From Streptacidiphilus sp. ASG 303 (GTDB lineage Bacteria > Actinomycetota > Actinomycetes > Streptomycetales > Streptomycetaceae), in NCBI RefSeq assembly GCF_020991365.1, contig NZ_JAJLRA010000002.1, positions 1 to 64,000 on the forward strand: a stretch of 64,000 nt of DNA. Reading direction: 5' to 3'. Made by a program: the position numbers and the translations under genes. The notes under the pieces were generated by a model. It saw only the letters and a program-made list of their open reading frames with translations. It was not told the origin of the DNA and searched no databases. This document shows positions 46,687 to 57,408 of the stretch, piece by piece. The first letter of the stretch is position 1, and each line of letters opens with the position of its first letter.

Positions 46687-47631
46687 CTACCGCGTGCGGG
46701 ACCGCCCGCGGCGGCGGGCCAGGCCCCAGCCGCCGCGCTGGACCAGCAGGGTCAGGACGCCCGCGGCCACGATGCCCAGCAGGTTGAGGGCGAGCTGCTG
46801 GGACGACCCGACGGCCTGGGCGACGTCGCCGTAGCCGAGCGCCACCGCGGCGTTGGCCGCGGCCGGCACGGTGGTAACGGAGATCGCCACGCCCACCAGG
46901 GTCCCGGACCGGGCGGAGGTGAGCGAGAGCAGTCCGGCGATCCCGGCGAGGAAGGCGACCACGAAGGACATCGGGTCGGGCTGCCAGATGAACGAGGTGT
47001 TGGGGCGGTCCCCGTCGAAGCGGGCCCGGCTGAACAGCCCCAGGGCGTCCATCAGCAGGGAGAAGCCGACCGTCAGCAGCATCGCGACGGCGAAGCCGAC
47101 CACCAGCGCCAGGAGCGAGCGCCAGGCCAGCCGGGGCCGCCGCTCGACCAGGGCCACGCACACCCCGGCCAGCGGGCCGAACTCCGGTCCCACCGCCATG
47201 GCGCCGACCACCAGGATCGCGCTGTCCAGCACCGCCCCGCAGGCCGCCAGCATCGTCGCCAGGGCGAGGAACGCCAGGAACGTCGCCGAGAGGGTGGACT
47301 CCTCGTGGGTGGCGTCCGCCACCGCCTCCCACACCACCGCGTCGGCGCCCTCGCCCGGAGCCTCCTTCTCCGCCCGGTCCGCGTGGCGGGAGAGGGAGAG
47401 GCCCACCTCCTCCGCGGTGATGGCGCCCTCCTCCTGGAGGCCGCACTTCTGCAGCGCGGCGATCAGGCCGTCCGCGGCCTCCCGCGCCACGTCGCACAGC
47501 ACCAGGTCACCGGCGGGGCGGCGGGCCGCGCCGGGGAGGACCACGACGTGGGTGACGCCGACGGTGCCGTCCAGGCAGGCCCGCACCTCGTCGGCGAGGT
47601 CGGCGGGCACGATCAGGCGCAGGTGCAGCAC
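46687..47631 (-). CDS. DUF389 family membrane protein
   Basis: A 314-residue protein with a soluble N-terminal domain (about 1-110, VLHLRLIVPADLADEVRACL) and six to seven membrane segments. The family hallmark region is SAILVVGAMAVGPEFGPLAGVCVAL. DUF389/TIGR00341-type proteins have no proven function. The start GTG at 47631 is five bases after GGAG. The Arg-rich C-terminus (LARRRGRSRTR) faces the cytoplasm. Monocistronic. Confidence 0.87.
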   Translation of the reverse strand: MLHLRLIVPADLADEVRACLDGTVGVTHVVVLPGAARRPAGDLVLCDVAREAADGLIAALQKCGLQEEGAITAEEVGLSLSRHADRAEKEAPGEGADAVVWEAVADATHEESTLSATFLAFLALATMLAACGAVLDSAILVVGAMAVGPEFGPLAGVCVALVERRPRLAWRSLLALVVGFAVAMLLTVGFSLLMDALGLFSRARFDGDRPNTSFIWQPDPMSFVVAFLAGIAGLLSLTSARSGTLVGVAISVTTVPAAANAAVALGYGDVAQAVGSSQQLALNLLGIVAAGVLTLLVQRGGWGLARRRGRSRTR

Positions 47632-48003
47632 GTCAGCTCCAACGGCTCCGGCGGGACGGGGCGGGCCGGACCGGGCTGCGCCCGGCCGGGGTCGGCGCCC
47701 CAGGGTACGGGGGCGGTCCAGGGTACGGGGCACGGGCCCGGCGGACGGGCTCAGCCCGCGCCCAGGGCGTCCCGCAGCAGCCGGGCCTCCTTCACCAGCC
47801 GGGAGGAGCCGCCGCGGGCGGCGAGCGCGGTCACCTCCGGCACGGCGCCGCGCGCCCGGCTGCGGCGGGCGCGGGGGCGGCCGCGCCCGGCGGCTGAACC
47901 CCGCCCCCGCGGGTACGCGCACCGGGAGGACGCCGCTGCCGAGGGCGGGCCGCCGACCGGCCGCCGGCGGGTGAATATCTCACATGTGAGATACGGTTCG
48001 GGT
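47632..48003. other. Intergenic region upstream of the XRE-MurA gene
   Basis: A 372-bp divergent region. It holds the 18-bp palindrome at 47976-47993. A short minus-strand open stretch (47750-47850) could encode about 30 residues but has no good start. I see nothing else. Confidence 0.5.
47976..47993. promoter_or_regulatory. Perfect 18-bp palindrome, operator of the XRE-MurA gene
   Basis: TATCTCACATGTGAGATA ends 10 bp before the GTG start of a gene whose product begins with an XRE-type HTH. The palindrome also contains TGAGATA, a possible -10 element. Autoregulation by the fused HTH is the simplest reading. The sequence is seen; the binding is inferred. Confidence 0.8.
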
Positions 48004-49533
48004 GTGACAGATGACTACCTCGCTCGCATCGGCAGGCTCATCCGCGACGCCCGCAAGCACCGGGGCTGGACCCAACTGCAACTGGCCGAGGCACTGGCCA
48101 CCAGTCAGAGCGCCGTCAACCGCATCGAACGGGGCGGACAGAACATCAGTCTTGATATGATCGCCCGCATCGGCGAGGCGCTCGACAGCGAGATCGTCTC
48201 CCTCGGCTACGCCGGCCCCATGCACCTGCGGGTGGTCGGCGGCCGCCGCCTCTCGGGCAGCATCGACGTCAAGACCAGCAAGAACGCCTGCGTCGCCCTG
48301 CTGTGCGCCTCGCTGCTCAACTCCGGCCGCACCACCCTGCGCCGGGTCGCCCGGATCGAGGAGGTCTACCGGATCCTGGAGGTGCTGGCCAGCATCGGCG
48401 TGCGCACCCGGTGGACCAACGACGGCCGCGACCTGGAGATCGACCCGCCGGAGCAGCTCAACCTGGCCGGGATGGACGCCGACGCGGCCCGCCGGACCCG
48501 CAGCGTCATCATGTTCCTGGGCCCGCTGATGCACCTCGCCGACCGCTTCCGCCTGCCGTACGCGGGCGGCTGCGACCTGGGCACCCGCACGGTGCAGCCG
48601 CACGTCAGCGCCCTGCGCCACTTCGGCCTGGAGATCACCGCCACCGGCGGCATCTACCACGCCGAGGTCGAGCGCGGCGCCTCGCCGGGCCGCCCCATCG
48701 TGCTGACCGAGCGCGGCGACACCGTGACCGAGAACGCGCTGCTCGCGGCCGCCCGCCACGACGGCGTGACCGTCATCCGCAACGCCAGCTCCAACTACAT
48801 GGTGCAGGACCTCTGCTTCTTCCTGGAGCAGCTGGGCGTCAAGGTCGAGGGCGTCGGCTCCACCACGCTCACCGTGCACGGCGTCCCGCACATCCACCGC
48901 GACGTGGACTACAGCCCGTCGGAGGACCCGGTGGAGGCGATGAGCCTGCTGGCCGCCGCCGTGGTCACCTCGTCCGAGCTGACGATCCGCCGGGTGCCGA
49001 TCGAGTTCCTGGAGATCGAGCTCGCGGTGCTGGAGGAGATGGGCCTGGACCACGAGCGCGGCGGCGAGTACGCCGCGGACAACGGCCGGACCCGGCTGGT
49101 GGACCTGCTCGTGCGGCCCTCGAAGCTGCGGTCCCCCATCGACAAGATCCACCCGATGCCGTTCCCCGGCCTCAACATCGACAACGTGCCGTTCTTCGCA
49201 GCGATCGCCGCGACCGCGCAGGGCTCCACGCTGATCCACGACTGGGTCTACGACAACCGGGCCATCTACCTCACCGAGCTGACCCGCCTCGGCGCCGGCG
49301 TCAAACTGCTGGACCCGCACCGGGTCCTGGTGGAGGGTCCGACACGGTGGCGGGCGGCGGAGATGATGTGCCCGCCGGCGCTGCGGCCGGCGGTGGTGGT
49401 CCTGCTGGCGATGATGGCGGCGGAGGGCACGTCGGTGCTGCGCAACGTGTACGTCATCAACCGCGGCTACGAGGAACTGGCGGAGCGCCTCAACTCGGTC
49501 GGCGCGCAGATCGAGATCTTCCGCGACATCTGA
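48004..49533 (+). CDS. XRE HTH-MurA-like enolpyruvyl transferase fusion
   Basis: A 509-residue protein. Residues 6-65 are an XRE/Cro-type HTH (WTQLQLAEALATSQSAVNRIERG). Residues 73-505 are a UDP-GlcNAc enolpyruvyl transferase fold with its catalytic features kept: Lys93-Asn94 (TSKNA, UDP-GlcNAc/PEP site), Cys190 in AGGCDLGTRTVQPH (the PEP-reactive loop cysteine), an Arg in the ALRPAVVV stretch where MurA has DLR, and NRGYEELAERLNSVGA near the end. MurA catalyses the first committed step of peptidoglycan synthesis. The fused regulator suggests a second, conditional MurA that controls its own gene through the upstream palindrome. The GTG at 48004 is probably leaderless or nearly so. Confidence 0.9.
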   Translation: MTDDYLARIGRLIRDARKHRGWTQLQLAEALATSQSAVNRIERGGQNISLDMIARIGEALDSEIVSLGYAGPMHLRVVGGRRLSGSIDVKTSKNACVALLCASLLNSGRTTLRRVARIEEVYRILEVLASIGVRTRWTNDGRDLEIDPPEQLNLAGMDADAARRTRSVIMFLGPLMHLADRFRLPYAGGCDLGTRTVQPHVSALRHFGLEITATGGIYHAEVERGASPGRPIVLTERGDTVTENALLAAARHDGVTVIRNASSNYMVQDLCFFLEQLGVKVEGVGSTTLTVHGVPHIHRDVDYSPSEDPVEAMSLLAAAVVTSSELTIRRVPIEFLEIELAVLEEMGLDHERGGEYAADNGRTRLVDLLVRPSKLRSPIDKIHPMPFPGLNIDNVPFFAAIAATAQGSTLIHDWVYDNRAIYLTELTRLGAGVKLLDPHRVLVEGPTRWRAAEMMCPPALRPAVVVLLAMMAAEGTSVLRNVYVINRGYEELAERLNSVGAQIEIFRDI

Positions 49534-49871: not shown

Positions 49872-51917
49872 TCAGGTCCGGCAGTCGTCGCCGGCGAGGC
49901 TGAACCGGGCCGGAGGACGGTTGCCCTCCTCCCAGGAGGCGAGGAAGCCCAGGGTGAAGGACTGCCCGGCGGCCACGTCGGTGTTCCAGTCGATCGCGGA
50001 GAGCCGGGCGGCGGGTCCCGCGTCGCGGAGCACGGCGTTCCACAGCTGCACGACGCGCTGCCCGTCGGGGAAGTCCCAGCTGAGGGTCCAGCCGTGCAGC
50101 GGCCGGGCCGAGGTGACGGTGAGCTCAGCCTGGAACTGCCCGCTCCACTGGTTGACCACCCGGTACGCCACCGAGCAGGACGCCGGCGCGGCGGTCCGGG
50201 CGGCCGGCGGCGGGGCGGACCGCCGGGACGGGCGCCCCGCCGGGGACGCCGGGGCTGCCGGGCGGGCCGGGCCGGAGCGGGCGGCGGCGGGCGTCGCCGT
50301 CGGTGCCGCCTCCGGCGGCGCGGTGCCGGGCAGGCCCAGCCACCGCTGCTGCGGGGAGCCGCCGCGGGGCTTGAGGGCGACGTCCGAGCCCTCCCCGCCC
50401 GACAGCGCCGTCAGGGCGAGGTCGGGCGCCGTACGCGGCACCAGCAGCCCCTGCACCGTGAGTTCGAACCGCATCCGCGCGGCGCCGCCGCCCCCGGTGG
50501 GGCAGGGGCCCAGGCCGGAGCCGAGCGACGCGTCGCCCCGCGAGTCGAGGCAGAGCCGGGGGTCGCCGAGGTTGCGGAGCAGCGCGTCGGCGGCGTACGC
50601 CCACTGCTGGGTGGGGGCGCCGTCGCACCGGGCGACGACCACGTCGGCGCCCGCCCGGGGGGTGCCTCCCCTGACGTCGAGGCAGCCGCCGGAGGCGGCG
50701 TTGCGCAGTTCGGTGCGGAAGGCCCCGGCCGGGGGTGCGGGGAGCTCCCCGGACGACGCGCTGCCGACGGGCGCCGTGGACGCGCCGGAGGGGCCCGCGG
50801 CGGCGGAGGTCCCACCGCCCGGGGCGGTCCGGCCGGCGTGCGGGTCCCCGCCGCCCTCGGCGGTGCGGAGGGTGGCCGCGACCACCACGGCGGCGCCCAG
50901 GCCGATGAGGACGGCCGCGAGGCCGACGCGGCCGGCCGGTCCGGGCCGGCGCCGCCGTGCGGCACGGGCGTCCCCGGCGGGCCGCGGGGCGGCGCCCGGG
51001 GCCGGGGCCGTCGGCGGGGCGTCCGGGCCGCCGGGCCGTGCGTCCGTCCGCACGCCCGGCCGTGCGTCCGTCCGCACGCCCGGCTGTACGTCCGGCCGTA
51101 CGTCCGGCAGCGCGCCTGGCGGACCGGCCGCGCGGGGCCCGGGGACGAAGCAGCGCACGCCGGGTTCTCCCAGGAGGTCCGCGGTGAACGCCGCGGGCCA
51201 CCGCTCACCGGAGCCGGCCAGCCGGTCGGCGGCGGAGCGGCAGACCGGGCAGTCGGCGAGGTGGCGGCGCAGGTCCGCGGAGCGCAGGGTGCCGCCGCTG
51301 CGGGTGGAGACGTCCAGCAGGCCGGCGTAGCGGCGGCACCGCTCGTCGCCGAGGGTCCCCAGGTGGGCGCGGAGGCAGCGCTCGCGGAACAGTTCGCGCG
51401 CCCAGACCAGCTGCTGCTCGGCCTCGGCGGGGTCGACGCCGAGCAGGCGGGCCGCCGCGGCGGGCGGCTCGCCCTCGACGGCGCAGTGCCACAGCAGGCC
51501 GCGCGCCGCCTCGGGGACGGCCCGGTAGGCGTGGAGCGCGGGGGTTCCGGGCCGGCCGGCGGCCGGGGGGTGCCCGGCGGCGGGGTCGAGGTCGGCGGCG
51601 CGGCCACCGGCCCGCCAGGCCTCGGCGGCCGCGCGGACCTGCAGGAGGAGTTCGGGTCTCCAGGCGGTGGAGGGGCCGTTTCCGGCGCGCACCCGGTGGA
51701 GGGTGCGGGAGAAGGCCTGGGCGGCCAGCCGTCCGGCGGCCGCGGGGGACGCGGTGCACGCCGTGGCGTAGGCGAAGGCGGCGTCCCAGTGGCGGGTGAG
51801 CAGCTGCTCGGCCGCCGCTGCGGGGTCGCCGTCGGGGCCGCCGCGCCGTACCGCCCTGATGAGGGCGCTGTCGGGGGGAGCGGCCGGATCCGCGGACGAT
51901 GCCGTTAAGTCGGTCAC
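49872..51917 (-). CDS. Sigma-like/zinc-finger membrane protein with ricin-B and CBM2 domains
   Basis: A 681-residue predicted single-span protein. Cytoplasmic part: a region resembling sigma-70 region 2 (about 33-80, LLTRHWDAAFAYA), a region 4-like stretch (about 133-185, AARLLGVDPAEAEQQLVWAR) and a zinc-finger anti-sigma-like motif His219-x3-Cys223-x2-Cys226 (HLADCPVCR). After a repeat-bearing linker comes a membrane helix (331-350). Outside are a ricin-B-like lectin domain (about 405-525, ASGGCLDVRGG) and a C-terminal family 2 cellulose-binding module (about 580-681). Codon 4 is TTA. The GTG at 51917 has AAGGA ten bases upstream. It may be a surface sugar sensor; signalling is inferred. Confidence 0.72.
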   Translation of the reverse strand: MTDLTASSADPAAPPDSALIRAVRRGGPDGDPAAAAEQLLTRHWDAAFAYATACTASPAAAGRLAAQAFSRTLHRVRAGNGPSTAWRPELLLQVRAAAEAWRAGGRAADLDPAAGHPPAAGRPGTPALHAYRAVPEAARGLLWHCAVEGEPPAAAARLLGVDPAEAEQQLVWARELFRERCLRAHLGTLGDERCRRYAGLLDVSTRSGGTLRSADLRRHLADCPVCRSAADRLAGSGERWPAAFTADLLGEPGVRCFVPGPRAAGPPGALPDVRPDVQPGVRTDARPGVRTDARPGGPDAPPTAPAPGAAPRPAGDARAARRRRPGPAGRVGLAAVLIGLGAAVVVAATLRTAEGGGDPHAGRTAPGGGTSAAAGPSGASTAPVGSASSGELPAPPAGAFRTELRNAASGGCLDVRGGTPRAGADVVVARCDGAPTQQWAYAADALLRNLGDPRLCLDSRGDASLGSGLGPCPTGGGGAARMRFELTVQGLLVPRTAPDLALTALSGGEGSDVALKPRGGSPQQRWLGLPGTAPPEAAPTATPAAARSGPARPAAPASPAGRPSRRSAPPPAARTAAPASCSVAYRVVNQWSGQFQAELTVTSARPLHGWTLSWDFPDGQRVVQLWNAVLRDAGPAARLSAIDWNTDVAAGQSFTLGFLASWEEGNRPPARFSLAGDDCRT
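51906..51908 (-). other. TTA leucine codon (bldA target)
   Basis: Codon 4 of the lectin-type gene is TTA, read in Streptomyces only by the bldA tRNA. It is the sole TTA I found in frame in any gene of the window. Confidence 0.85.
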
Positions 51918-52342
51918 GGAGGGGAGGTCCTTGCGGGGAGCGGGAGCGGGGTCGGGGTGGGGAGGCCGCCGCCTCCCCCGCGGGGCGCCGGGCCGTGCGG
52001 CACCGGACCCGCGCCGGGCGCCGGAACCGGGGGTCCGTGCCCCGGAGCGCACACATTACAAGCGGTCACTCCCCCAAGCGATCACATGTCGCTAACTTGT
52101 CATGACCTGTACGGAAATCACCTCTCCGTGGTCCGCCGGGGCCCGCTCCCGCCCGTCGGCGCCCCGACCGGCGGCCCACCCGGGGGCGCGTCCCGGTCCC
52201 GCCCGGGACCGCCGCCCGCGGCCCGGCGCCGGAGCGCCGCCCCGGGCGAGAACAGGTTCCATCCGCCCGCACGCCTCCCCGGGCCGCCCCGGCGTAACCG
52301 GGGTCACACCGGCCGGGCGGGCCCGTCTGCCACCATGGGCAG
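51918..52342. promoter_or_regulatory. Divergent regulatory region, lectin-type and thioesterase genes
   Basis: A 425-bp region with a rare AT-richer core (52048-52115). It holds a direct repeat AGCGGTCAC (52061-52069)/AGCGATCAC (52077-52085) with 16-bp spacing, an inverted repeat AGCGA-N7-TCGCT (52077-52093) and GTCATGAC (near 52099-52106). The minus-strand TAATGT near 52053-52058 is a -10 candidate for the lectin-type gene. The rest is featureless GC-rich DNA, with CACCAT near 52331 as a -10 candidate for the thioesterase. Confidence 0.5.
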
Positions 52343-53287
52343 GTGACCGACGTGACGGAGCAGCAGACGGGGGCGGGGACGGCGGGCAGCACCTTCGCGG
52401 AGCTGCTGCGGCTGGACGAACTGGATGAGAACCTGTTCCGGGGCACCTGTCACGCCGGCGCCCCGCTGCGGGCCTTCGGCGGCCAGGTCGCGGCGCAGGC
52501 CCTCACCGCGGCGGGGCGCACCACGGACGCCGGCCGGGCGGTGCACTCGCTGCACGGCTACTTCGTCCGCCCCGGCGACCCACGGCGCCCCATCGTGTAC
52601 CAGGTGGAGCGGGTCCGCGACGGACGCTCGTACACCACCCGCCGGGTCGGCGCCGTCCAGCGCGGGGAGGTCATCTTCACCCTCTCCGCCTCCTTCAAGG
52701 AGCCGGAGGAGGGCGCCGAGCGCCAGCGCAGCGCACCGGGGGTTCCCGGGCCCGAGGAGCTGCCCGACCCCTACGCCGCCTGGGCCGAGGCGGACCCGGA
52801 GGGGTACGCGGCGTCGGCGCTCTCCCGCACCCTGCGGATGCGCTTCGTGCCGCCCGGCTCCCCGGGGCTGCCGCCGGAGGTGCCCGGCATGCCGCAGCAG
52901 TTCGTCTGGCTGCGGGCCGCGGCGCCGCTGCCCGCGGACGAGCCGCTGCTGCACGTCTGCGCCCTGACCTACCTCTCCGACCTCACGCTGGCGTCCACCA
53001 CCGCCCTGCACCTGCAGGAGCCCCGCTTCCGCCGCTCGGGCCCGCCGCGGCTCACCCTGGCCTCGCTGGACCACGCGATGTGGTTCCACCGCCCGTTCCG
53101 CGCGGACGAGTGGCTGCTCTTCGCCCAACGCAGCCCCTCGTCGTCGGACGGACGGGGCCTGGCCCTCGGCGAGTTCTACGACCGCGGCGGGGCGCTGGTC
53201 GCCTCCGCCGTCCAGGAGGCGCTGGTGCGGGAGCGTCGCGCCCCCGCGGCGGACCGGCCCTCCGCACCCGGGCCCCGGACGCCCTGA
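52343..53287 (+). CDS. tesB: Acyl-CoA thioesterase II
   Basis: A 314-residue double hot-dog enzyme that hydrolyses acyl-CoA to free acid and CoA. It opens with the TesB pattern (LDENLFRG, then FGGQVAAQALTAA), keeps SLHGYFVRPGD, and in the second half has LTYLSDLTLAST with the Asp and Thr of the Asp-Thr/Ser-Gln set, then SLDHAMWFHRPFRADEW. No ribosome site precedes the GTG at 52343, and the mRNA may be leaderless. The C-terminal 20 residues are variable. Confidence 0.92.
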   Translation: MTDVTEQQTGAGTAGSTFAELLRLDELDENLFRGTCHAGAPLRAFGGQVAAQALTAAGRTTDAGRAVHSLHGYFVRPGDPRRPIVYQVERVRDGRSYTTRRVGAVQRGEVIFTLSASFKEPEEGAERQRSAPGVPGPEELPDPYAAWAEADPEGYAASALSRTLRMRFVPPGSPGLPPEVPGMPQQFVWLRAAAPLPADEPLLHVCALTYLSDLTLASTTALHLQEPRFRRSGPPRLTLASLDHAMWFHRPFRADEWLLFAQRSPSSSDGRGLALGEFYDRGGALVASAVQEALVRERRAPAADRPSAPGPRTP

Positions 53288-55960: not shown

Positions 55961-57280
55961 TCAGCCGAGCACCCCGCCGGAGGCGGCGGCCATCCGCCGG
56001 GCGTGGTCGGCCAGCAGGCGGGCGGTGCTGCGGCCCGGGTTGGCCGGGTCGTTGTTCCAGGTGACGCGGTACCCGTCGTAGTCGGGGTAGAACGAGCCGT
56101 CGTCGACGCGCGAGGTGAGGATCCAGAACTGGGAGCCGGCGCCGCCGTGCTCCTCCACCGCGCGGGTCCAGGCGGCGTAGCCCGCGTCGCGGGCGGCGAC
56201 GTCGGGTACGCCCCGGCCGGCGTCGATCGCGAGGCCGAACTCCTCCAGCACGACCGGCTTGCCGAGGGCGCGGGCGTCGGCGACGTGGTCGGTGATCCAC
56301 CGGGTGCCCCAGGCGACGGGGTCGGTGCCGGGCTTGCCGCCCGGGTGCTCGCCCCAGCCCTGCGGGTACAGGTGGCAGGTCGCGTAGTCGACGTGGGGGA
56401 GCGCCACCAGCTTCCTCCAGGGCGTGCCCTCGTAGTCGGAGTAGGGGTAGTCGTCGCGGCCCGCCTCGCCGTAGAAGCCCTCGTCGCCGACGGCGACGAG
56501 CTGGCGGGGCGCCAGCCGCTTGACGTGGGCGCTCATCTCGGCCGCCCAGGCGAGCAGGGTGGCGCCGGACCTGTCGCTGCGGCAGCGGGGCTCGTTGGCG
56601 AGCTCCCAGGCCATGACGGTGGGGTCGTCGCGGTAGCGCAGCCCGGTGTAGCGGTTGCGGCGGCGCAGGACGTGCGCGGCGTACGCCTTGTAGCAGTCCC
56701 GGATCGCCCGCTCCGTGTAGAACCGGTCGTGGTGGACGCCGTCGCCGTAGGAGTCGTCCTCCAGACCGAGGAACCACGTGACGTACTGCCGCATGCCGCC
56801 GTAGTCGGGCCAGTTGTTGACCAGCGGGAGGACGAGGCGGATCCCCAGCTGCCCGGCCTTGTGGACGGCGTAGTCCAGGGAGTCGAAGGCGTCCTCGTCG
56901 TAGCGGTGCGGCTCGGGCTGGAGCGCCCCCTTGCCGGTGCCGTCGGCGAACGCCCACGCCCGGAGCACCGGCAGGCCCATGGCCGCGGCGTCGTCGAGCA
57001 CGCTGTCGATCATGTAATGGGACTGCTGGTGGAGGTAGTAGCAGTTGGTGCCGCCGAAGCGGAGGGGCGCGCCGTCGAGGCGGAAGGCGCCGTCCCGCAC
57101 CGTCACGAAGCCGCGGTGGCCGGACCACCGGGCGGACGTGCCGTCCGGCCCGGCCGCCCGCGCGGCGGGGGCGGCGGCGCCGACCGCGAGGGCGGCTGCG
57201 GCGGAGGCGGCGCCGCCCAGCAGGAGGCGGCGCGGGAGGGCGGGGGTGACAACGTTGTCAGACTGCGGAGCGGAAGCCAT
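55961..57280 (-). CDS. Secreted GH5 glycoside hydrolase, mannanase-like
   Basis: A 439-residue exported enzyme. Residues about 14-43 form a twin-arginine-type signal (LPRRLLLGG, hydrophobic run, ARA cleavage). The catalytic barrel has FGGTNCYYLH, a general acid/base Glu230 in WELANEP and a nucleophile Glu at 346/347 in VVLEEFGL. TFW-like and PDYGG positions suit the endo-1,4-beta-mannanase branch (GH5_7 type); activity is inferred. AGGAGG lies ten bases before the ATG at 57280. A 14-bp operator-like palindrome lies in codons 7-12, so repression by a LacI-type sugar regulator is likely. No carbohydrate-binding module is present. Confidence 0.88.
   Translation of the reverse strand: MASAPQSDNVVTPALPRRLLLGGAASAAAALAVGAAAPAARAAGPDGTSARWSGHRGFVTVRDGAFRLDGAPLRFGGTNCYYLHQQSHYMIDSVLDDAAAMGLPVLRAWAFADGTGKGALQPEPHRYDEDAFDSLDYAVHKAGQLGIRLVLPLVNNWPDYGGMRQYVTWFLGLEDDSYGDGVHHDRFYTERAIRDCYKAYAAHVLRRRNRYTGLRYRDDPTVMAWELANEPRCRSDRSGATLLAWAAEMSAHVKRLAPRQLVAVGDEGFYGEAGRDDYPYSDYEGTPWRKLVALPHVDYATCHLYPQGWGEHPGGKPGTDPVAWGTRWITDHVADARALGKPVVLEEFGLAIDAGRGVPDVAARDAGYAAWTRAVEEHGGAGSQFWILTSRVDDGSFYPDYDGYRVTWNNDPANPGRSTARLLADHARRMAAASGGVLG
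57247..57260. promoter_or_regulatory. Operator-like palindrome inside the GH5 reading frame
   Basis: TGACAACGTTGTCA is a perfect 14-bp palindrome at codons 7-12 of the GH5 gene. Its size, and the central CG, match LacI-family operators such as the CebR box of cellulose genes in related bacteria, which has another sequence. Confidence 0.7.
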
Positions 57281-57408
57281 GGGGCGGATACCTCCTGGAG
57301 TCGACGGCACGTCACATCGGGGCGGCGGTGGGCGCCCCGGGGGCCGACTGCCGATCGAAGCACCGTTCGGGCCCGCCGGTCAATGGCCCGGACACGGCGG
57401 GGTCGGCG

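What the first reader, a model, noticed from the sequence alone, without database searches (positions are those of the whole stretch)
49872..51917. One-polypeptide chimera: sigma-like region, anti-sigma-type zinc finger, membrane helix, ricin-B lectin and CBM2
The N-terminal half resembles a worn sigma-70 protein (region 2 and region 4-like) followed by a HxxxCxxC zinc finger as in ZAS anti-sigma factors. The outer half carries two carbohydrate-binding modules. A sugar-sensing signalling protein acting without a separate sigma/anti-sigma pair would be new; it could also be a surface adhesin with relic domains.
Basis: partly seen in the sequence, partly recalled or inferred. Interest (0 to 1): 0.75.

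Follow-up and report, generated by a model that had tools for sequence, protein, structure and literature searches.

The report
Membrane sugar-binder with eroded sigma half
A soil bacterium carries a single protein that joins a sugar-binding outside, one membrane crossing and an inside half shaped like a gene-switching sigma factor, and in its branch of the family the sigma half has lost residues a working sigma usually needs while still being kept by selection, which suggests it may act as a sigma look-alike.

Summary
One 681-residue gene (minus strand, 51917 to 49872) encodes a sigma2-like domain, a sigma4-like domain, a class I anti-sigma zinc domain (C-x24-H-x3-C-x2-C), a proline-rich linker, one membrane helix, a ricin-B lectin and a CBM2. 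AlphaFold of the N-terminal part (pLDDT 86.6) matches ECF sigma2 and sigma4.

That such a fusion would be new is wrong: ECF52 (SCO4117 of S. coelicolor) is published with this layout. The window's genome has a separate, better ECF52 candidate.

Less ordinary: the gene belongs to a distinct Streptomycetaceae clade with an eroded sigma half. The region-2.2 aspartate, kept in 25 of 28 sister-clade proteins, is present in 0 of 33; the -35 recognition helix is acidic. Yet in relatives the sigma-like and zinc domains are under stronger purifying selection than linker, ricin or CBM2. So it is hardly a relic, and perhaps no ordinary sigma. I favour a membrane-bound sigma mimic (0.45); a divergent active sigma is a close rival (0.38), since the sub-family nearest the window keeps a second region-2.2 acid in 19 of 20 (not in the window). 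Nothing was tested at the bench.

The parts
49872..51917 (-). whole gene, 681 residues, GTG start
   Evidence: start supported by the ortholog in G002
51594..51881 (-). sigma2-like domain, residues 13-108 (region 2.2 eroded: R63, Q67)
   Evidence: AlphaFold and structure match; residue counts
51348..51563 (-). sigma4-like domain, residues 119-190 (recognition helix 161-172 net charge -3)
51147..51344 (-). class I anti-sigma (ZAS-type) domain, residues 192-257, four helices, C194, H219, C223, C226
   Evidence: motif invariant in alignments; helix layout as described for ASDI domains in PMC7406223 (passages)
50940..51134 (-). disordered proline-rich linker, residues 262-326, partly built of a 24-base tandem repeat at 51029-51108
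   Evidence: pLDDT under 50; repeat
50853..50936 (-). membrane helix, residues 328-355
   Evidence: hydropathy, model
50340..50714 (-). ricin-B beta-trefoil lectin, residues 402-526
   Evidence: PF00652 E 2.3e-14; pLDDT mostly over 90
50190..50318 (-). second disordered linker, residues 534-576
49881..50177 (-). CBM2 cellulose-binding module, residues 581-679
   Evidence: PF00553 E 3.8e-24; sequence match to exoglucanase CBM2 structures 6qfs and 1exg; the model is of middling confidence here
52050..52085 (-). possible promoter region: GTGAYCGCTTG twice (52059-52069, 52075-52085) and a stretch TGTAATGTGTG also found upstream of the G002 ortholog
   Evidence: no sigma-70 consensus site found; weak

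Best explanation
It is a single-pass membrane signalling protein of the fused sigma / anti-sigma / carbohydrate-binding type, from a clade in which the sigma half has become a sigma look-alike. Outside the cell the ricin-B and CBM2 modules bind polysaccharide (inferred from the domains). Inside, the zinc anti-sigma domain is clasped by the sigma-like domain of the same chain (inferred from fold and joint conservation). Because the sigma-like half has lost usual core-polymerase and -35 contact residues (their role is recalled), it probably does not direct RNA polymerase itself. More likely it occupies, or competes for, an anti-sigma surface, as PhyR does in Alphaproteobacteria, so that carbohydrate binding or proteolysis changes the amount of free anti-sigma domain or free mimic and thereby the activity of a true sigma factor elsewhere. 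Shown: architecture, fold (predicted), clade, residue loss, purifying selection in relatives. Inferred: mimicry, ligand, partner, direction of the switch. Membership in the fused type is near certain (about 0.95); the mimic mechanism is about 0.45, lowered from 0.5 when a recount showed that the nearest sub-family keeps the second acid in 19 of 20.
For: Fold. Zinc ligands C194, H219, C223, C226 invariant in the 62-row full-length alignment, in the 44 rows of A6 and in 20 of 20 of the CBM2 sub-family. Erosion: aspartate at the column of window R63 in 25 of 28 clade I, 0 of 33 clade II, 0 of 64 rows of A5; acidic residue at the column of window Q67 in 28 of 28 clade I, 5 of 33 clade II, 0 of 64 rows of A5. 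Recognition-helix net charge: clade I mean +1.14, clade II -1.97, window -3; CBM2 sub-family -2.6; other sigma factors of the same genome +2.12, n 24. Pfam Sigma70_r2 in 0 of 44 and Sigma70_r4_2 in 4 of 44 clade-II proteins at E 0.01, window included; the window gene is not among the 50 Sigma70_r2 matches of its genome. Constraint: median dN/dS over 182 clade-II pairs: sigma2 0.13, sigma4 0.25, zinc domain 0.24, ricin 0.40, linker 0.57; CBM2 sub-family, 39 pairs: sigma2 0.34, sigma4 0.33, zinc 0.25, linker 0.52, CBM2 0.57. PhyR, described as a sigma mimic (PMC4598750, passages), is among the structural matches.
Against: The CBM2 sub-family nearest the window keeps an acidic residue at column 67 in 19 of 20 (17 E, 2 D; only the window has Q) and one of the 20 keeps aspartate at column 63. 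Strong constraint on sigma2 is also what an active but divergent sigma would show. No partner sigma is linked to the window gene; the nine neighbours scanned include an EPSP-synthase-type enzyme, a thioesterase and a Rieske protein and no membrane protease. dN/dS pairs are not independent, named members were assigned to clade II by sequence and not by tree, and the window gene itself is too distant to be in any pair. PhyR matches are expected for any sigma fold. The window sits on a long branch (0.94), so its exact place is unsure.
Confidence: 0.45

Rival explanations
1. A divergent but active ECF sigma factor, regulated as proposed for ECF52: carbohydrate binding triggers proteolysis at the membrane, the sigma domain is freed from the zinc domain and transcribes a small regulon.
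For: Same layout as SCO4117/ECF52, for which a strain expressing only the sigma domain showed a milder defect than the full deletion and activated its own gene (PMC5826349, passages), and for which proteolytic release is proposed. Sigma2 is strongly constrained. The CBM2 sub-family keeps an acid at column 67 in 19 of 20.
Against: Region 2.2 aspartate absent in 0-of-33 and 0-of-64 sets and in 19 of the 20 CBM2 sub-family members, acidic recognition helix, no Pfam sigma hit in the window protein.
Confidence: 0.38
2. The zinc domain acts in trans as anti-sigma for another sigma factor, and the sigma-like half is its built-in plug, released by the sugar signal.
For: Zinc domain is complete while the in-cis sigma looks inactive; the genome has 50 Sigma70_r2 matches.
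Against: No partner identified; this is a sub-case of the favoured model, and its probability is part of that model's.
Confidence: 0.2
3. A surface polysaccharide-binding protein (adhesin) whose inner half is a decaying relic.
For: Outer modules are clear; the sigma half is not recognised by Pfam; three relatives on plasmids are named in their records only as ricin or LamG proteins.
Against: The inner domains have lower dN/dS than the outer ones in both sets of relatives; zinc ligands do not vary; AlphaFold gives an intact fold.
Confidence: 0.08

Closest known systems
ECF52 sigma factors (SCO4117, Streptomyces coelicolor)
   Same: One chain: ECF sigma, zinc finger, membrane helix, proline-rich extension, carbohydrate-binding domain (PMC5826349, abstract and passages).
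   Different: SCO4117 carries smart00776 (NPCBM by recall) and a recognised sigma domain, downstream of atrA. The window protein has ricin-B plus CBM2, an eroded sigma half and other neighbours. The same genome has a better ECF52 candidate at C135 (NPCBM, Sigma70_r2 E 1.7e-10, TetR gene just upstream).
ECF53 and ECF48
   Same: Reviewed with ECF52 as anti-sigma fusions with a membrane part; some ECF52/53 members are said to carry predicted glycosyl hydrolase and carbohydrate-binding domains (PMC8999054 and PMC10766802, passages).
   Different: Their defining models are not held here, so whether the window clade is ECF53 or another number could not be tested.
Class I anti-sigma (ASDI/ZAS) domains
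   Same: Hx3Cx2C over helices 2 and 3, helices 1 and 4 as further elements (PMC7406223, passages; model).
   Different: Fused behind its own sigma-like domain.
PhyR sigma-factor mimic of Alphaproteobacteria
   Same: Sigma2/sigma4-like fold used to bind an anti-sigma factor rather than to act as a sigma (PMC4598750, passages); matched at Z 7.4 (3t0y, 73 aligned, rmsd 2.5).
   Different: PhyR has a receiver domain and a separate anti-sigma NepR; here the other parts are a zinc anti-sigma domain in cis, a membrane helix and carbohydrate-binding modules. No mimicry has been shown here.
IutY (ECF243, Pseudomonas putida)
   Same: Sigma fused to its membrane anti-sigma in one chain, released by proteolysis (PMC8999054, passages).
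   Different: Iron-starvation signalling and a functional sigma; no carbohydrate-binding module is mentioned in the passages seen.

Membership tests
ECF sigma factor | sigma2 and sigma4 fold | tested here: met
   AlphaFold pLDDT 86.6; sigma2 Z 11.9, sigma4 Z 9.4; profile A1 finds SigE at 3.2e-15, clade-II profile A5 only at 0.003
ECF sigma factor | recognised sigma-70 region 2 and region 4 sequence signatures | tested here: not met
   no Pfam sigma hit at E 1 for the window; 0 of 44 clade members for region 2 and 4 of 44 for region 4_2 at E 0.01
ECF sigma factor | core polymerase binding and promoter recognition | not testable with these tools
   needs bench work; residue evidence leans against, the retained acid in the CBM2 sub-family leans for
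ECF52 | zinc finger, membrane helix and proline-rich extension behind the sigma domain | tested here: met
ECF52 | carbohydrate-binding domain of the SCO4117 type (smart00776) | tested here: not met
   ricin-B and CBM2 instead; NPCBM is on another gene of this genome
ECF52 | falls with SCO4117 orthologs in a tree | tested here: inconclusive
   L014, checked to have NPCBM and a TetR neighbour, groups with L016, L102 and L105 away from the window's clade; SCO4117 itself was not in the data
ECF53 | ECF53 classification model | not testable with these tools
   model not held; two classification papers looked up are not held
class I anti-sigma domain (ASDI/ZAS) | H-x3-C-x2-C over helices 2 and 3 in a four-helix domain | tested here: met
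   H219, C223, C226, with C194 in helix 1; helices 192-206, 214-222, 224-234, 240-257
PhyR-type sigma mimic | receiver domain controlling the mimic | tested here: not met
   no receiver domain in the Pfam scan
PhyR-type sigma mimic | binds an anti-sigma factor and not polymerase | not testable with these tools
   only residue and fold evidence

The most novel reading that the evidence does not exclude
Streptomycetes carry a large, uncharacterised family of membrane-anchored pseudo-sigma factors: sigma-shaped domains that no longer work with polymerase, kept by selection together with a zinc anti-sigma domain in the same chain and gated from outside by interchangeable carbohydrate-binding modules (ricin, CBM2, both, or LamG). 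This would be a sigma-mimicry switch in Gram-positive bacteria wired directly to polysaccharide sensing.
Probability: 0.33. Interest if true: 0.75.

Novelty: new variant of a known kind. Interest (0 to 1): 0.5.

Why it matters
If the sigma half is a mimic, many streptomycete genes that are named only by their lectin module are regulators, and there would be a case of sigma mimicry beside PhyR, with polysaccharide as the likely cue. If instead it is an active sigma, it would show that a usual region 2.2 residue and a basic -35 helix can be dispensed with. Either answer is reachable with one purified domain and core polymerase.

Tried and rejected
Considered and rejected: (1) the whole arrangement as new: rejected by the ECF52 literature. 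(2) the window gene as the ECF52 ortholog of its genome: rejected, a better candidate exists. (3) relic domains: disfavoured by dN/dS in relatives. (4) extracellular N-terminus: no N-terminal hydrophobic segment in a simple scan. (5) an operon at the locus: the flanking genes at 47305-49533 and 52343-53287 are on the other strand; a GH5 cellulase-like gene lies at 55961-57310, about 4 kb away, and was not used as evidence.

Led nowhere: exact-peptide scan with the window protein gave 34 pattern matches but no relative; consensus promoter and terminator scans found nothing; searches for a printed description of pseudo-sigma or degenerate sigma proteins, or of ricin-bearing ECF sigma factors, showed none in their listings (one search listed 8 of 50 papers), in a library of open papers only; two classification papers are not held.

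Limits of counts: (81 of 150 family genomes) mixes both clades, so no clade-II prevalence is claimed. The 62 members are those found in loci that I fetched, not all matches. One of them (L104) lies outside both clades on a long branch; it was left out and counted with clade II (34 rows). The motif script missed the zinc motif in L003, whose chosen start lies upstream so that the motif is likely outside the stretch searched; the alignment shows it. In A2 and A5 one or two rows are cut before the zinc ligands and count as gaps. A5 holds 63 and A6 43 of the 82 members found in the loci; A6 leaves out mainly cut or odd-length ones. In one search, 29 of 30 fetched control loci (of 50 matches) could be aligned, some poorly and some not ECF; 22 have a residue at column 63 (19 D) and 23 at column 67 (17 acidic).

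Full report
What is there. The gene runs on the minus strand from 51917 (GTG) to 49872 and encodes 681 residues. Pfam names only the outer half: Ricin_B_lectin 402-526 and CBM_2 581-679. The inner half is identified through relatives and fold. tblastn against plasmid records finds sigma-70-annotated proteins over residues 38-249. A profile of eight N-terminal halves (two of clade II, six of the sister clade) finds solved ECF sigma factors at E 3.2e-15; a profile of the window's clade alone reaches only E 0.003, again with SigE. AlphaFold on 64 aligned sequences gives pLDDT 86.6 and pTM 0.83 for residues 1-261. VIA-align, a second look at Foldseek's list, puts residues 13-105 on SigW sigma2 (Z 11.9, rmsd 2.0) and 119-190 on SigL sigma4 (Z 9.4, rmsd 3.4); Foldseek's own E-values are weak (best 0.022), but its first 25 rows are sigma-factor entries. 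Behind sigma4 come four helices with C194, H219, C223 and C226, the layout printed for class I anti-sigma domains. Then follow a disordered linker, one membrane helix (328-355), the lectin, a second linker and the CBM2 (mean pLDDT 70.7 for the full chain, middling for CBM2).

Known kind. The layout sigma, zinc finger, membrane helix, proline-rich stretch, carbohydrate-binding module is that of ECF52, characterised for SCO4117 (PMC5826349, abstract and passages). ECF48, 52 and 53 are reviewed together as probably released by proteolysis (PMC8999054, passages). The window's own genome holds three members of the wider family at E 1e-15: the window gene; a gene at C121 with ricin and a weak Sigma70_r2 hit (E 0.0057); and a gene at C135 with NPCBM, Sigma70_r2 and Sigma70_r4_2, just downstream of a TetR gene, which fits ECF52 beside atrA.

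Two clades. I gathered 62 members from loci fetched out of 150 sampled genomes of the family and from plasmid records. Their tree (rooted at the midpoint for drawing only) has one set of 28 (clade I, weakly supported, 91/75, with the ECF52-like gene), one of 33 (clade II, 100/96, with the window gene) and one long-branch row outside. In Pfam scans of the 62, Sigma70_r2 is found in 25 and r4_2 in 27 (members not itemised). In a second set of 44 (window plus 43 proteins from named Streptomyces loci), Sigma70_r2 is found in none and r4_2 in 4 at E 0.01. How many of the 559 are clade II was not checked.

What is eroded. At the column of window R63, aspartate is present in 25 of 28 clade I, 0 of 33 clade II (one has glutamate) and 0 of 64 rows of alignment A5; at the column of window Q67 an acidic residue stands in 28 of 28, 5 of 33 and 0 of 64. 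That these region 2.2 positions contact core polymerase is recalled from sigma70 and ECF work, not tested here. As a control, other sigma factors of the same genome have aspartate at the first column in 19 of 22 and an acid at the second in 17 of 23 alignable cases. The helix aligned with the -35 recognition helix has mean net charge +1.14 in clade I, -1.97 in clade II, -3 in the window and +2.12 in the genome's other sigma factors (n 24).

What is kept. The zinc ligands do not vary in full-length alignments. Across 182 clade-II pairs with 86-97% identical DNA, median dN/dS is 0.13 for sigma2, 0.25 for sigma4, 0.24 for the zinc domain, 0.40 for ricin and 0.57 for the linker (130 to 182 pairs per domain). 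In the sub-family nearest the window, which carries CBM2 (20 proteins: the window, L039, L041, L090, L091 and 15 fetched), the medians over 39 pairs are 0.34, 0.33, 0.25, linker 0.52 and CBM2 0.57. Pairs share branches, and the window gene is too distant to enter any pair (nearest identity 41%), so this is evidence about its kin. Against my reading, this sub-family keeps an acid at column 67 in 19 of 20 (17 E, 2 D), the window being the exception, and one of the 20 keeps aspartate at column 63; two of the 20 have a neutral recognition helix. On recounting this I lowered the mimic model from 0.5 to 0.45 and raised the active-sigma rival from 0.35 to 0.38.

Outer modules are exchangeable. In the 44 proteins of A6 ricin is the rule (43 of 44). 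The CBM2 sub-family shows no ricin in the four members scanned with Pfam; the other 15 were checked for CBM2 only. The window protein has both. Its ortholog in genome G002 lies beside the same EPSP-synthase-type gene on one contig and near the same thioesterase and Rieske genes on another; its C-terminal piece ends after ricin, and tblastn finds no CBM2 on that contig. Two plasmid relatives with the same inner layout and an eroded region 2.2 carry a LamG-type module and a third carries ricin; their records name them only by the outer module. Constraint inside and turnover outside is what a sensor with one output and changing ligands would show; this is inference.

Mechanism. Favoured (0.45): a membrane-bound sigma mimic. 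The sigma-like half and the zinc domain bind each other, the outer modules bind polysaccharide, and the switch alters free mimic or free anti-sigma rather than delivering a working sigma to polymerase. PhyR is the precedent for a sigma-shaped protein acting on an anti-sigma factor (PMC4598750, passages). Main rival (0.38): an active but divergent sigma, released as proposed for ECF52. Least likely (0.08): an adhesin with relics. No partner, ligand, cleavage or transcription has been shown for any member of clade II in what I read.

Verdict. The finding is a new variant of a known kind: a streptomycete clade of fused sigma/anti-sigma lectin proteins whose sigma half looks disabled yet is conserved.

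Noticed in passing
window 47980-49530: An XRE-type helix-turn-helix fused in front of an EPSP-synthase-type (MurA-like) domain.
   Followed up: no
window 51029-51108: A 24-base tandem repeat (3.3 copies, 89% match) encodes part of the proline-rich linker.
   Followed up: no
window 52050-52085: GTGAYCGCTTG occurs twice, 16 bases apart, upstream of the gene and nowhere else in the window; the stretch TGTAATGTGTG beside it also stands upstream of the G002 ortholog.
   Followed up: partly
L080, L136, L186 (Streptomyces genomes): Two genes of this family, of different sub-families, lie about 5 to 10 kb apart with a large PAS/phosphatase-like gene and a small two-gene cassette between them; in L080 an ordinary ECF-type sigma gene and a Ser/Thr kinase gene lie between them as well (function names by eye, no family search).
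   Followed up: partly
L268 2339-4249 and L269 2405-4240: Relatives with a LamG-type outer module, directly downstream of an MHYT-domain gene on both plasmids.
   Followed up: partly
L086 5830-6477 and L087 start: The same-genus ortholog is split over two contig ends and its C-terminal piece stops after ricin without CBM2, so CBM2 was gained in the window lineage or lost in the other.
   Followed up: partly
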